A stretch of DNA of 47,003 nucleotides from an uncultured Eubacteriales bacterium. Lineage in GTDB: Bacteria > Bacillota > Clostridia > Christensenellales > Aristaeellaceae. The DNA is taken from NCBI GenBank assembly GCA_902796025.1, contig CADBNW010000043.1, positions 1-47,003 of the forward strand, in the 5' to 3' direction. Position numbers and translations under genes: made by a program. How positions within the stretch are numbered: position 1 is the stretch's first letter; the number at the start of each line of letters is the position of its first letter. Shown in pieces: positions 36,295-43,804 of the stretch. The notes below the pieces were generated by a model that searched no databases, was not told the origin of the DNA, and worked only from the letters and a program-made list of their open reading frames with translations.

Positions 36295-36323
36295 TTGACA
36301 AGTCAGCGCCCGCAGTTTACAAT
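36295..36323 (+). promoter_or_regulatory. Promoter for the ABCG-like transporter
   Basis: Perfect TTGACA (36295-36300), a 17-base spacer and TACAAT (36318-36323), 11 of 12 consensus positions. It is divergent from the promoter at 36227-36255. Confidence 0.85.
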
Positions 36324-36404: not shown

Positions 36405-37760
36405 GTGGATACGATACTTCAGATCCTGTGCCGTTTCCTGCTGGACGCAAGCTTTGGCTACGAGACCCTGCTTGCCGTTTTGTACGTCGTTGGCCTTTGG
36501 GGCGTAATGACCAAATCCGGCATCAAGGGCTGGTGGGCGCTGATTCCCTTTGCAAGGGACTATCAGCTGTCCCGCTGCGCCGGCCGCGAGCCGGAGGGCC
36601 GCGTTTACTCCGTAGCGGGGGCCGCGCTTACCTTCATAAGCATCATCACCTACCTTATACCCGACAGCACCGACAGCATCAGCAGCATAGAATTGCTCCT
36701 GGTTGTGCTCAGCATCCCCCTTGGGATCACCTGTCTCATCTACGGCATACGCATCTGGAGCGGCATGATCCAGGTCTACGGCCTGCGCAGGCGCTGGATG
36801 TGGCTGTGCCTGGTTTCCTATACAAGATGGATCCCCGCCCTGGTCTGGGGCTTCGTCAAAAAGTATCAGCCTACCTGGCAGGTGGAGGACTTCAGCGCCG
36901 AAATGTCGCGCCTTGCCAGACACGGCTCCGCCGGGGTCATGGAGGACGGCCTGACCGTCAACCTGAAGGAGCGCAGCGCCCGTGAGTTTTTCCAGAAAAA
37001 GGTGCTGCTTCGCGACATCCACATGAGCATCCCCCAGGGACACATGGTGCTGCTGCTTGGCGGCTCCGGCGCGGGCAAAACCACGTTTCTGAACGCCGTG
37101 AACGGCTACGAAAAGGCGGATGCCGAGGTGATGCTGAACGGCAGCAACATGTACAAGCAGTACCGGAAGATGCAGTACGAGGTCGGCTTCGTGCCCCAGT
37201 CGGAGATGATGCGCGGCAAGGACACGGTGCTGTACACCCTTATGGACGCGGCGAGCCTTCGCCTGCCAAAGGACGTGACGCCCAGCCAGCGCAGGGCGCG
37301 CGTGGACGAGGTGATGGACATTTTCGGTCTGCAGCCGGTCAAAAACAATCTGGTGGAGAAGCTCTCCGGCGGACAGAAAAAGCGCCTGTCCATCTCCATG
37401 GAGTTTATCAGCAATCCCTCCCTGTTCATTTTGGACGAACCGGACAGCGGGCTTGACGGCGTGATGGCGCGAGAATTGTTTGTGCAGCTTCGCAAAATCG
37501 CGGATACGGGCAAGATCATCATCGTCATCACCCATACCCCCGACCGCGTGATCGATCTGTTCGACGACGTGATCGTGCTGGCGAAGGACTCCGCCCGCAC
37601 GGGGCGGCTGGCCTACTACGGCAGCATCGAGGAGGCCCGGCGCTTCTTTAAGCGTGACACCATGGAGCAGATCGTAAAATCCGTCAATCGCAAGGAAGAG
37701 GGCGGCGACGGCCTCGCGGACGAATACGTGCTGAAGTTTGCGGAGGTGCAGCATGGATAA
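36405..37760 (+). CDS. ABCG-like ATPase with N-terminal membrane domain
   Basis: The GTG start has AGGAG 8 bases upstream. Residues 1-155 hold about four hydrophobic segments; SGIKGWWALIPFARDYQLS resembles the KxGxxGWxALIPxYN region of DUF5684-type membrane proteins (my inference). Residues about 180-451 are an ABC ATPase: Walker A GGSGAGKT, signature LSGGQKKR, Walker B LFILDEPDSGLDG and switch His in ITHTPDR. The GFVPQ-to-LSGGQ spacing and the tail (YYGSIEEARRFF) resemble ABCG/Pdr-type proteins. The permease gene overlaps it by 8 bp. The substrate is unknown; direction is probably export. Confidence 0.85.
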   Translation: MDTILQILCRFLLDASFGYETLLAVLYVVGLWGVMTKSGIKGWWALIPFARDYQLSRCAGREPEGRVYSVAGAALTFISIITYLIPDSTDSISSIELLLVVLSIPLGITCLIYGIRIWSGMIQVYGLRRRWMWLCLVSYTRWIPALVWGFVKKYQPTWQVEDFSAEMSRLARHGSAGVMEDGLTVNLKERSAREFFQKKVLLRDIHMSIPQGHMVLLLGGSGAGKTTFLNAVNGYEKADAEVMLNGSNMYKQYRKMQYEVGFVPQSEMMRGKDTVLYTLMDAASLRLPKDVTPSQRRARVDEVMDIFGLQPVKNNLVEKLSGGQKKRLSISMEFISNPSLFILDEPDSGLDGVMARELFVQLRKIADTGKIIIVITHTPDRVIDLFDDVIVLAKDSARTGRLAYYGSIEEARRFFKRDTMEQIVKSVNRKEEGGDGLADEYVLKFAEVQHG

Positions 37761-39219
37761 CAGATCTTCCCGATCCAGCGCCACGAACGTGACCATACGC
37801 CATCGCGGGCGCGGCTCGCAGGTGCGCATCTACTTTGGAAAGCTGCTGCGCATGTTCGTGTATCAAAACGACTGGAAGGTGCTGCCCATGGCGGCGCTGA
37901 TCGCCGGTCTTGTGGGTATGGTGGTGCGCAAAAAGATGTTTTTGAACATGGAAGGCACGCTGATGGGCGCCTTTGCCCTGGTGTGCGTGTGCATCTGGAA
38001 CGGGTGCTTTAACTCCATCCAGGTCATCTGCCGAGAGCGCGACGTGATAAAGCGCGAGCACCGAAGCGGCATGCACATTTCCTCCTACGTGTTTTCGCAC
38101 ATGCTGTACCAGGCGATCCTGTGCCTGATGCAGACGTTTGTGACGATCTACGTCACTTTGCTTGTCGGCGTAAAATACCCAAGCGAAGGGCTTATCACCT
38201 CGTTTTTCCTGCTGGACTTTGCGATCTCCATGTTTTTGATCAGCTTTGCCGCGGACATGCTGTCGCTGTGGGTTTCCTCCCTTGCGCACAACACCACCAC
38301 AGCCATGACCATCATGCCCTTCGTGCTGATCTTCCAGCTGGTGTTTTCCGGCGGCATGCTGACCCTGCCTGCCTGGACCGAGACCCTCACCCACTTCACG
38401 ATCTCTAATCCCGGCCTCAAGGTCATCGCGGCGCAGGCAGACACCAATAATAAGCCTTACGCTACCATCTCCAGCATGCTTGGCAAAATGCGAGACAACG
38501 AGATCGGCGGAAGCTTTACCCTTGGAGAAGTGATGGATCTTATGCAGGCTACAGACAATTCCGCCATCGACCAGCTGCGTTCAAAGCAGATCGGCAAGGT
38601 GACGACCCTGGGCGAGGCAAGGAAAATCCTGGAAAGCTCTAAAAGCTTTGACGCCTTCAAGCAGGAGCAGGCTTTAGGGGATATGACTGCCGGCGAAGCG
38701 CTAAAGCTCATCGCCACTTCCAGCGAGCTTGAGGAGCTTCGCGCTGCTCCTCTTGGCGATACGGGACTGACGTTTGGAGCGCTGATCAACGAGCTTCTTT
38801 CAAACGAAGCCTTTCAGCCGGCGCTTGAAACGCAGATCGTCCGCCAGATGACGATCGGCGAGCTGCTTGAAAAGCTTGATGCAGCCGGCATCACCGAAAA
38901 ATACGCGAACATCGAGATCGGCACGGAGCTTACGCTTGGCGAGGTCGTGGATTTGCTTAGCGCAAACCCCGACGTGCAGGAAAAGCGCGGTGAGACCTTT
39001 GAGCTCAAAACCACCGTGGGGCAGCTGATGGACCTTGTGGGCGAAGAAAAGGTGATGCACTTTATCGAGGAAAAGGCCGCCAAGGCCAGCTACCAGCCCG
39101 CCTACGAAAACAGCGAAGACAACATCATCGACTACTGGCTGCGCCTTATGGGCTTTGCCCTGCTGTTTTCGCTGCTTGCGATGGTCACGCTGGAATTTAT
39201 CGACAAGGATAAAAGGTAA
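37753..39219 (+). CDS. ABC-2/ABCG-like permease with seven-fold repeat insertion
   Basis: The ATG at 37753 follows GGAGGTG. Residues about 45-220 contain five hydrophobic segments with an ABCG-like first half, including the RERDVIKREHRSGMHISSYV connecting motif. Residues about 255-430 form seven repeats of about 27 residues, each with a (T)xGEx(3)(L/I) core: FTLGEVMDLM 255, TTLGEARKIL 284, MTAGEALKLI 311, LTFGALINEL 339, MTIGELLEKL 366, LTLGEVVDLL 393, TTVGQLMDLV 420. A last helix (461-480) and KDKR end the protein. By ABCG topology the insertion should be extracellular, between helices 5 and 6. I do not know a named domain for it. Confidence 0.83.
   Translation: MDNRSSRSSATNVTIRHRGRGSQVRIYFGKLLRMFVYQNDWKVLPMAALIAGLVGMVVRKKMFLNMEGTLMGAFALVCVCIWNGCFNSIQVICRERDVIKREHRSGMHISSYVFSHMLYQAILCLMQTFVTIYVTLLVGVKYPSEGLITSFFLLDFAISMFLISFAADMLSLWVSSLAHNTTTAMTIMPFVLIFQLVFSGGMLTLPAWTETLTHFTISNPGLKVIAAQADTNNKPYATISSMLGKMRDNEIGGSFTLGEVMDLMQATDNSAIDQLRSKQIGKVTTLGEARKILESSKSFDAFKQEQALGDMTAGEALKLIATSSELEELRAAPLGDTGLTFGALINELLSNEAFQPALETQIVRQMTIGELLEKLDAAGITEKYANIEIGTELTLGEVVDLLSANPDVQEKRGETFELKTTVGQLMDLVGEEKVMHFIEEKAAKASYQPAYENSEDNIIDYWLRLMGFALLFSLLAMVTLEFIDKDKR
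38515..39042 (+). repeat. Seven tandem protein repeats of about 27 residues within the permease
   Basis: The coding repeat is divergent at the DNA level but clear in protein: a T-(L/A/F/I/V)-G-(E/A/Q) core every 27-29 residues followed by an amphipathic helix. The regular period implies internal duplication of a helical unit and an elongated array. Confidence 0.8.
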
Positions 39220-39303: not shown

Positions 39304-39309
39304 GAAAAT

Positions 39310-39345
39310 TTCCCCGCCGTATTTGCCGGCGGGGAAAGCTTTTTT
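39310..39345 (+). terminator. Terminator of the ABCG-like operon
   Basis: A 10-bp stem (39310-39319 with 39327-39336) followed by agctttttt. It overlaps the 3' end of the convergent ATPase gene. Confidence 0.85.
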
Positions 39346-42667: not shown

Positions 42668-43804
42668 GTGAAAAGGATCATCGTCGCCGCAGTTTTGATG
42701 CTGTGTCTGCTGACACTGGCCGTCGCGCCCTTCGCCATGGCTGAAGAGGCGGCCACGGCCGTCGAATCCGCCGCCGAGGACGCGGCTGAAACCGTAACCG
42801 AAGCAGCCCAGGACGCGGCCGAAACCGTGACTGAAGCAGCCCAGGACACGGCCGAAACCGTGACTGAAGAGGCGGCCGCCGCTGCCGACGGCGCGGCTGA
42901 AGCCGCCGGTGAAGTTGCCGAAACGGCCGAGGAGGCCGCTGAAGAAGCTGTCGAAGAAGCCGAGGAAGTCAGCGAGGGCTGGTTCAAGCAGGCCTTTGGC
43001 AAAATCTTCGAGGAGCCCTGGTATTCGATCTCGTTCATCCTGCTGCTTCTGGTCGTCGGCTGCTTTGTCTACTTCCAGAAGAGCCACACATGGACTGTGA
43101 TGCGCGCCGTGCTGCTGGCCGCCGTCTTCGCGCTGGGACTGGTGCTGGCCATCATCTCCACGATCCGCGCCCTGGGCGAGAGCGTGGGCGTATTCCCCTA
43201 CATCCTGGCGATCCTCGTGCTTCTCGTCGTCATGGTGGTCGTGCTGATGACCCAGGATAAGAAAGCCTGGAACGCCCGCTCTGTCGCCTACGCCGCCATG
43301 TGCATCGCCACGGCCTATATCCTGTCGCTGATCAAGCTGTTCGAAATGCCCCAGGGCGGTTCGGTCAAGCTGGCGGCCATGCTCCCGCTCGTACTGTACG
43401 CCATGGCCTTCGGCGCGCCCAAGGGTCTGGTCGCGGGCTGCGCGTTCGGCCTGTTCAAGCTGATCAACGATCCGTACATCATTCACCCCGTGCAGCTGCT
43501 GGTGGACTATCCCATGGCCTACGGCGCGGTGGCGCTGTGCTGCCTGGCGGGGCTGATCAAGGTGGACGACCGCTGGAAGCTGCTCATCGCCGTGGTGCTG
43601 GGCTACCTCGGCAAGTACATCATGTCGGTGCTGTCCGGCGTCATCTTCTTCGCCGAGTACGCCGGCGATCAGAATCCGCTGATCTACTCGCTGGTCTACA
43701 ACATCACATACATCATCCCCGAGGCGGCCATCGCGTGCGTCATCACGCTGATCCCCGGCTTTGCGAGGATCCTCAAGGCCATGAAGGCGTCGGCCAAGGC
43801 CTGA
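42668..43804 (+). CDS. thiT: ThiT-like thiamine S component with acidic N-terminal extension
   Basis: The GTG start has AGGTGGAG 7 bases upstream. Residues 1-25 look like a signal peptide (cleavage after AMA). Residues 26-105 are rich in Ala and Glu, with three 11-residue repeats of the DAAETVTEAAQ type. After FEEPWYSISF come three extra hydrophobic segments (about 120-200), and then a ThiT domain (about 205-370) with EMPQGGSVKLAAMLPLVLYA and PYIIHPVQLLVDYPMAYGA, both strong family signatures. Ordinary ThiT is near 190 aa; this one has 378. The riboswitch upstream supports thiamine transport. It should couple to an EcfAAT module such as that at 13-15.5 kb. Confidence 0.87.
   Translation: MKRIIVAAVLMLCLLTLAVAPFAMAEEAATAVESAAEDAAETVTEAAQDAAETVTEAAQDTAETVTEEAAAAADGAAEAAGEVAETAEEAAEEAVEEAEEVSEGWFKQAFGKIFEEPWYSISFILLLLVVGCFVYFQKSHTWTVMRAVLLAAVFALGLVLAIISTIRALGESVGVFPYILAILVLLVVMVVVLMTQDKKAWNARSVAYAAMCIATAYILSLIKLFEMPQGGSVKLAAMLPLVLYAMAFGAPKGLVAGCAFGLFKLINDPYIIHPVQLLVDYPMAYGAVALCCLAGLIKVDDRWKLLIAVVLGYLGKYIMSVLSGVIFFAEYAGDQNPLIYSLVYNITYIIPEAAIACVITLIPGFARILKAMKASAKA
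42779..42877 (+). repeat. Three tandem 33-bp repeats in the thiT extension
   Basis: Copies at 42779-42811, 42812-42844 and 42845-42877 are nearly identical, each encoding D-A/T-A-E-T-V-T-E plus A-A-Q or a variant ending. In-frame tandem units like this can change copy number by slippage. Confidence 0.85.

What the first reader, a model, noticed from the sequence alone, without database searches (positions are those of the whole stretch)
37753..39219. ABCG-like permease with an array of seven 27-residue repeats in the expected external loop
Residues 255-430 repeat a T-x-G-E helix unit seven times with a period of 27-29, between membrane segments 5 and 6 where ABCG proteins carry a short external loop. 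The partner ATPase has its own N-terminal membrane domain. I recognise no named domain for the array, which could form a long external helical rod or substrate trap.
Basis: partly seen in the sequence, partly recalled or inferred. Interest (0 to 1): 0.8.

Follow-up and report, generated by a model that had tools for sequence, protein, structure and literature searches.

The report
Bacterial exporter with length-variable repeat stalk
A gut-type bacterium makes a two-gene ABC exporter whose outward-facing loop carries seven copies of a 27-residue building block, relatives carry anything from none to seven copies on the same transporter, and the pattern of gains and losses suggests that the copies fold back on themselves as a two-legged stalk above the exit.

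Summary
The permease (37753-39219) has seven T-x-G units, T at residues 256, 285, 312, 340, 367, 394 and 421, between membrane segments 5 and 6, the place of ABCG extracellular loop 3. No Pfam, NCBIfam, PHROGs or PDB search covers them convincingly. The unit reads as an N-capped amphipathic helix, a turn, a second short helix and an extended link; a long single rod is not shown. The array is a modular insertion: two homologous ATPase-permease pairs elsewhere in the class have none, and relatives carry about two to seven units (parsimony: 32 length-class changes on a tree of 118 cores). In the window's 68-row clade lengths are almost only 7, 5 or 3; units go missing from the centre, and the ends are kept and best conserved. 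This suggested an antiparallel hairpin (1 with 7, 2 with 6, 3 with 5, tip at 4). Covariation favours that register over eight others (0 of 400 simulations reach it; weaker with a 21-letter alphabet). I read it as a length-tunable hairpin stalk or lid on an ABCG-type exporter. Substrate unknown. New variant of a known kind.

The parts
36405..37760 (+). ABC ATPase gene (451 aa): N-terminal membrane domain (four predicted segments, residues 22-151) plus ABCG-type nucleotide-binding domain (residues about 192-417)
   Evidence: TIGR00955 match 192-417 E 1.2e-52, PF00005 E 3e-24; membrane segments, Walker A GGSGAGKT at 219, LSGGQ at 320
36405..36869 (+). N-terminal membrane domain of the ATPase, possible distant relative of DUF5684
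   Evidence: PF18936 E 0.0058 for the window, 10 of 14 homologues match at E up to 1, best 0.001, below the curated cut-off
37753..39219 (+). permease gene, 488 aa, start overlaps the end of the ATPase gene by 8 bases
   Evidence: PF01061 residues 39-206 E 2.2e-15
37870..38367 (+). membrane segments 1-5 of the permease (residues 40-205)
   Evidence: hydropathy; PF01061 and TIGR00955 matches end at 206 and 212
38368..38511 (+). re-entry/proximal part of external loop 3 and base of the array (residues 206-253)
   Evidence: by eye kept in the arrayless homologues L212, L213; ABCG2 layout from passages of PMC12250437
38512..38598 (+). repeat unit 1 (residues 254-282)
38599..38679 (+). repeat unit 2 (283-309)
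38680..38763 (+). repeat unit 3 (310-337)
38764..38844 (+). repeat unit 4 (338-364), proposed tip
38845..38925 (+). repeat unit 5 (365-391)
38926..39006 (+). repeat unit 6 (392-418)
39007..39090 (+). repeat unit 7 (419-446)
39145..39201 (+). membrane segment 6 (residues 465-483)
   Evidence: hydropathy
36295..36323 (+). promoter-like site upstream of the pair (11 of 12 consensus bases)
   Evidence: consensus scan, 3 found against 1.6 expected, so weak
39309..39337 (+). terminator-like hairpin after the pair
   Evidence: consensus scan, 4 found against 4.1 expected, so weak

Best explanation
The pair is an ABCG-type exporter split into an ATPase with an extra membrane domain and a six-segment permease. 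External loop 3, which in ABCG2 helps form the lid over the exit, has been expanded by insertion of a tandem array of 27-residue helix-turn-helix units. The array leaves the membrane, turns at unit 4 and comes back, so that units 1 and 7, 2 and 6, 3 and 5 lie side by side: a two-legged stalk of three rungs and a tip. The conserved base (units 1 and 7 above all) sits on the exit of the transporter; the variable tip reaches into the cell wall or beyond, where it would guide the exported molecule or dock a partner. In the window's clade height changes mostly by one rung (two central units) at a time. Shown: repeat, position, insertion, copy-number variation, central loss, end conservation. Inferred with support: external location, antiparallel pairing. 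Inferred only: stalk function, substrate, dimer.
For: Array between segments 5 and 6, the position of EL3 in ABCG2 (PMC12250437, passages). Homologous pairs without units: L212 and L213, each with a membrane-domain ATPase upstream; L099; an FHA-ATPase beside an arrayless permease, L010. Length classes in 114 distinct array-bearing cores: 7 units 59, 5 units 26, 4 units 15, 3 units 8, 7 units plus linker 4, 2 units 2, none in the six-unit class; parsimony needs 32 changes over 118 rows. In the window's 68-row clade 43, 19, 5 and 1 rows have 7, 5, 3 and 4 units. The window and its nearest relative have 83% identical cores but 7 and 5 units. Of 14 five-unit arrays 7 read 1-2-5-6-7 and 3 read 1-2-3-6-7, 4 are unclear; both three-unit arrays examined keep 1 and 7; mean pairwise identity of units 1 to 7 is 0.48, 0.36, 0.25, 0.24, 0.41, 0.38, 0.46. 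Pro/Ala/Glu-rich linkers sit near the centre in the 4 longest proteins; in L076 the centre is replaced by another low-complexity repeat. Covariation: register i+j=8 exceeds all of 400 tree-based simulations, z 4.3, and is the only one of nine registers to do so.
Against: No structure model could be made. With a 21-letter alphabet the hairpin register is still the highest of nine but weak (z 1.3; 13 of 150 simulations reach it). Of the three predicted pairs 2-6 (2 of 100 simulations as high) and 3-5 (7 of 100) carry the signal; 1-7 does not (43 of 100). Neighbouring units as a set show no excess (64 of 100). Only 57 sequences, 48 effective. Outside the window's clade four-unit arrays are common (13 of 35 rows in one clade), so two-unit steps are not a law. 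The 118-row tree is a quick one with 24 of 115 inner branches well supported; those alone force 7 changes for the seven-unit class. No shared neighbour gene points to a substrate. A cysteine test for an external place was uninformative: the cytosolic ATPase domain is as poor in Cys.
Confidence: 0.55

Rival explanations
1. The array is a continuous alpha-solenoid (HEAT-like) lying over or away from the exit, used as a binding surface or substrate trap.
For: The array profile finds designed HEAT-like alphaRep chains in the PDB (best E 8.7e-6), and so does the profile of the whole permease (best 4.8e-5); units look like helix pairs of similar length.
Against: In the five alignments shown each matching stretch is weak on its own (best E 0.24) and, by my reading, sets the unit's N-cap against the wrong part of the HEAT repeat; 27-29 against about 31 residues (recalled); neighbouring-unit covariation shows no excess; loss in central pairs is not expected of a solenoid.
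Confidence: 0.2
2. The tip is a variable surface target, shaped by phages, predators or antibodies, and the transporter only carries it.
For: Low identity of central units (0.24-0.25), repeated changes of length, replacement of the centre by unrelated sequence.
Against: No test of selection was made; the length regularity in the window's clade asks for a structural constraint.
Confidence: 0.12
3. A tolerated insertion without a function of its own.
For: Arrayless homologues exist and lengths vary freely in some clades.
Against: Units 1 and 7 keep a mean identity of 0.46-0.48 and seven units recur in distant clades.
Confidence: 0.1
4. The loop is cytoplasmic.
For: Nothing positive, except that the short loop 59-62, outside in this model, is basic (3 K/R).
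Against: Six segments, basic N-terminus (8 K/R), five K/R in loop 82-121, basic C-terminus, array net charge -17; ABCG layout.
Confidence: 0.03

Closest known systems
ABCG (ABC2_membrane, PF01061) exporters such as ABCG2
   Same: Permease core matches PF01061; the ATPase is closest to the ABCG-like model TIGR00955; the insertion lies where EL3, part of the lid of ABCG2, lies.
   Different: ATPase and permease are separate genes. From the end of segment 5 to segment 6 the window has 259 residues; in ABCG2 re-entry helix plus EL3 span 560-630, EL3 alone 589-630 (passages of PMC12250437). The window's loop has no cysteine, ABCG2's EL3 has three.
FHA-domain ABC exporters of the Rv1747 kind
   Same: FHA-ATPases, fused to (L014, L018) or beside (L010) an arrayless ABC2 permease, occur as homologues in the same family of bacteria (FHA by Pfam). 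Rv1747 seen only in a search listing with abstract starts.
   Different: The window's ATPase has a membrane domain in place of FHA, and its permease has the array.
EsaA and the YhgE/Pip group (ABC-2-like membrane proteins with a long external domain)
   Same: Works-like only: long external domain on an ABC-2-type core in Bacillota. Recalled; the listings and passages I saw gave nothing on this that I use.
   Different: No ATPase partner, insertion at another place, no T-x-G-E units (all recalled, not compared here).
Repeats of large surface-type proteins in the same order (L174, L182-L202)
   Same: Consensus KLGDVIDIDEDSSGILKALKDTTIGDL resembles TVGELLDLLGESEVVQALRD; profile score 13.7 against at most 10.5 in 200 column-permuted controls.
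   Different: Period 34-36 in L182 and 31-42 in L186 instead of 27; aligned core only 10 columns; one hydrophobic segment in L182, no transporter.

Membership tests
ABCG-type exporter | ABC2_membrane permease core | tested here: met
   PF01061 57.2 bits against cut-off 26.9
ABCG-type exporter | ABCG-type nucleotide-binding domain | tested here: met
   best NCBIfam match TIGR00955 E 1.2e-52, though below that subfamily's own cut-off (179 of 736 bits)
ABCG-type exporter | one chain with order NBD-TMD | tested here: not met
   two overlapping genes in the window; in 68 of 77 relatives an ATPase frame ends within 400 bases of the permease frame; L092 alone was checked as a fusion, with Walker A, signature and permease motifs in one 924-aa frame
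ABCG-type exporter | large loop between segments 5 and 6 outside the cell | tested here: inconclusive
   position met by hydropathy; outside location inferred from ABCG layout and charge only
ABCG-type exporter | functional homodimer, transport of a known substrate | not testable with these tools
   no experiment
Rv1747-like FHA exporter | FHA domain on the ATPase | tested here: not met
   no FHA among the 17 Pfam matches of the window ATPase
DUF5684 | score above the family cut-off | tested here: inconclusive
   17.6 bits against 27.4; 10 of 14 homologues match weakly; the ATPases of L212 and L099 show no match at E up to 0.1
HEAT-like repeats | units in register with HEAT helices A and B | tested here: inconclusive
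   best whole-chain E 8.7e-6, but in the five alignments shown single stretches reach only E 0.24 and look out of register by eye; no reversed control was run
any Pfam, NCBIfam, PHROGs or PDB family for the array | significant match over several units | tested here: not met
   window array: Pfam 0.17, NCBIfam 0.094, PHROGs 0.018 over 19 residues, PDB none up to E 10; of 25 arrays 1 matched CBS at E 0.0006 and 4 a ubiquitin-like OTU1 model at best 0.0056; the profile's alphaRep hits are given above

The most novel reading that the evidence does not exclude
A new extracytoplasmic repeat superfamily (T-h-G-E ... h-R-D units) serves as a construction kit in Clostridia: in large surface-type proteins it runs as a long array, and in this ABC exporter it was inserted into the lid loop, folded back as a hairpin, and its height is tuned rung by rung to carry export across an envelope of given thickness.
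Probability: 0.2. Interest if true: 0.75.

Novelty: new variant of a known kind. Interest (0 to 1): 0.57.

Why it matters
ABCG2 is thought to release substrate past a small lid loop; here nature has run an insertion and deletion series on that loop, zero to seven units on a recognisable core, often within one family of bacteria. That makes a direct test possible of how far the lid can be extended and what an external stalk adds to an exporter. The length series also gives a case where fold topology (a hairpin) can be argued from indels and covariation and then checked.

Tried and rejected
HEAT membership from the PDB profile hits: not accepted, because the stretches shown are weak and look out of register. 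A reversed-sequence control for it was printed but not run. Recent duplication of units: the longest DNA repeat family has copies at most 77% alike to the reference over 30 bases, so the array looks old, and collapse of repeats in assembly is unlikely to explain shorter arrays (inference). Gene context as a guide to substrate: apart from the pair itself and frames antisense to it, the widest neighbour cluster is in 13 of 81 loci; antisense frames disturbed the gene calls and only 55 of 81 permeases were placed. Array in other proteins of the own genome: the only match up to E 10 is the array itself. In the order 9 of 297 genomes match the array profile, 5 of them the permease family and 4 weak hits elsewhere (E 0.0006 to 0.009); I read all four and pursued only L174. 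Phage or defence link: no PHROG or PADLOC family up to E 0.1 for the permease; the ATPase gives generic ATPase hits only, by my reading. Viral collection: 1 locus of 37 pattern matches, arrayless. Two unit-HMM counts undercount diverged units, so I use lengths and position-specific profiles. One search timed out and was replaced. The five-pair covariation statistic was chosen after seeing and is not counted as a prediction.

Rows left out: A2 holds 70 of the 80 loci plus the window. The motif filter missed L060, L066, L076 and L099 (read), and of the loci fetched gave no protein for L136, L143 and L165 (and the two placeholders). Classes go by length from a core motif, so some 'four-unit' rows (for example L134, L159) hold spacer rather than clear units. 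One search kept the best 80 of 320 relatives, the genome search draws samples, and its counts include fused FHA homologues without array.

Full report
Observation. The frame 37753-39219 is open and encodes a 488-residue permease whose start overlaps the last 8 bases of an ABC ATPase gene (36405-37760). Six hydrophobic segments are found and the array lies between the fifth and sixth.

The unit. Averaged over the first 53 rows of the 71-row alignment and seven units, T is at position 0 in 77%, G at +2 in 82%, Asp, Glu or Gln at +3 in 79%, hydrophobic residues at +1, +4, +5 and +8, polar residues at +9 to +12, a weaker hydrophobic pattern to +17, R at +18 and D at +19 in about a third, a hydrophobic residue at +22, and a short link to the next T. 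T-x-G-E reads as a helix N-capping box (recalled knowledge). So I read a unit as capped helix, turn, second helix and link; no structure was predicted. The window's array is acidic (net -17).

Known families. The core matches PF01061 (residues 39-206) and the ABCG-like model TIGR00955 up to residue 212; the ATPase matches TIGR00955 best. The array itself has no convincing match in Pfam, NCBIfam, PHROGs or, as a single sequence, the PDB. Scanned one by one, 25 arrays gave scattered weak Pfam hits, the best CBS at E 0.0006 in 1 of 25 and a ubiquitin-like OTU1 model at best 0.0056 in 4 of 25. A profile of 25 arrays hits designed HEAT-like alphaRep proteins at E 8.7e-6, but in the five alignments shown no single stretch is better than 0.24 and the register looks wrong by eye; I ran no reversed control, so this stays open rather than excluded. 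In ABCG2 the re-entry helix (560-588) and EL3 (589-630) lie between segments 5 and 6 and help form a lid over the exit (PMC12250437, passages; PMC6883074, passages).

Distribution. A homologue of the permease, with or without array, is found in 10 of 60 relatives, 128 of 300 genomes of the family, 2 of 299 of the phylum including the own genome and 15 of 341 of the class at E 1e-10, own genome included. The 80 kept loci are, by title, mostly uncultured Clostridia of ruminant gut samples; a few MAG labels (Blautia, Lachnospiraceae, Spirochaetales) may be wrong.

Insertion and copy number. Two homologous pairs from another family of the class keep, by eye, the sequence on both sides of the array but have no unit: L212 (56% identical over residues 16-249) and L213, both with an ATPase that starts with a membrane-domain-like stretch. 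A homologous permease beside an FHA-ATPase (L010) has a short loop. Among 114 distinct array-bearing proteins the length classes correspond to about seven (59), five (26), four (15), three (8) and two (2) units and seven with a Pro/Ala/Glu-rich linker (4); the six-unit class is empty. On a quick tree of 118 cores built without the array, parsimony needs 32 changes of class; well-supported branches alone force 7 for the seven-unit class and 6 for the five-unit class. On the careful 71-row tree the figures are 14, with 5 forced for the seven-unit class. The window's protein and its closest relative have 83% identical cores and seven against five units.

The rule. In the window's 68-row clade 43 rows have seven, 19 five, 5 three and 1 four units; in a sister clade of 35 rows 13 are in the four-unit class, so the rule is local. 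Position-specific profiles read 7 of 14 five-unit arrays as 1-2-5-6-7, 3 as 1-2-3-6-7 and leave 4 unclear; both three-unit arrays examined kept 1 and 7. Units 1 and 7 are the most conserved, 3 and 4 the least. Linkers enter near the centre in the four longest proteins, and in L076 the centre is replaced by another low-complexity repeat. A hairpin with its tip at the centre explains odd numbers, central pair loss, conserved ends and tolerance of the centre together. The hairpin with a central tip was noted before any covariation was computed.

Covariation. For 57 seven-unit proteins (48 effective) I computed corrected mutual information with a 7-class alphabet and compared unit pairs with simulations along the inferred tree with site-specific rates and frequencies. 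The predicted pairs 1-7, 2-6, 3-5 exceed all of 100 and all of 400 simulations (z 4.3), and all of 150 at a second threshold; none of eight other registers does (next best z 1.6 to 1.7). With 21 letters the register remains the highest but is weak (z 1.3, 13 of 150). The signal comes from 2-6 and 3-5; 1-7 is not above simulation, and neighbouring units as a set show no excess. I added pairs 1-6 and 2-5 in one statistic after seeing the first matrix, so only the three-pair statistic counts.

Partner and context. The ATPase's N-terminal domain is at best a weak relative of DUF5684 (10 of 14 homologues, below cut-off); no paper in the library holds the word DUF5684. In 68 of 77 relatives with a readable permease an ATPase frame ends within 400 bases of it. 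In the window the pair stands between dnaB-rplI-type genes and a sugar-type ABC ATPase on the other strand (names recalled). I found no shared neighbour that names a substrate.

Wider repeats. Proteins of other families of the order (21 of 248 genomes match L174's protein) carry repeats of mostly 34-36 residues with a similar core; L182, the longest frame of L174, has one hydrophobic segment, 59-77. The unit profile scores L174 above its shuffles with three of four HMM versions, and profile against profile 13.7 against at most 10.5 in 200 permuted controls, over 10 columns only. This is a lead, not a proof of kinship.

Literature. Three searches for repeats or stalks in ABC permease loops (15 of 22 papers listed, 1 of 1, 10 of 61) listed nothing that describes such an array by title or abstract start. 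Verdict: real, external by inference, a modular hairpin-like insertion in an ABCG-type exporter; new variant of a known kind; function inferred, substrate unknown.

Noticed in passing
L182-L202 (proteins matched from L174): Large proteins of other families of the order carry repeats of mostly 34-36 residues (KLGDVIDI...ILKALKDTTIGDL); the one scanned (L174) has no Pfam match below E 0.65.
   Followed up: partly
L076:6001-7470: The centre of the array is replaced by a Leu/Ala/Glu low-complexity repeat and a TEANTMQ-type repeat, while unit 1 and the last units are kept.
   Followed up: partly
L092:2775-5546: ATPase and permease lie in one 924-aa open frame, a natural fusion or a lost stop.
   Followed up: partly
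L019 and L079; L071 and L078: Single MAGs (RUG103, RUG11052, by title) hold two permeases of different array length (7 and 4, 7 and 5 units).
   Followed up: no
L099:2538-4924: An arrayless ATPase-permease pair lies on a contig of the viral collection next to a polyphosphate-kinase-like gene (name recalled); perhaps host DNA.
   Followed up: partly
loci, clusters 2, 5 and 10: A MATE-type transporter (13 of 81 loci), an RsbW-like (8) and a STAS-like protein (4), names recalled, lie in the flanks of some pairs, not in the window's.
   Followed up: no
window 42668-43804 (+): A membrane protein downstream has an Ala/Glu/Val/Thr-rich repeat (AAETVTEAAQD) after its N-terminal hydrophobic segment.
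   Followed up: no
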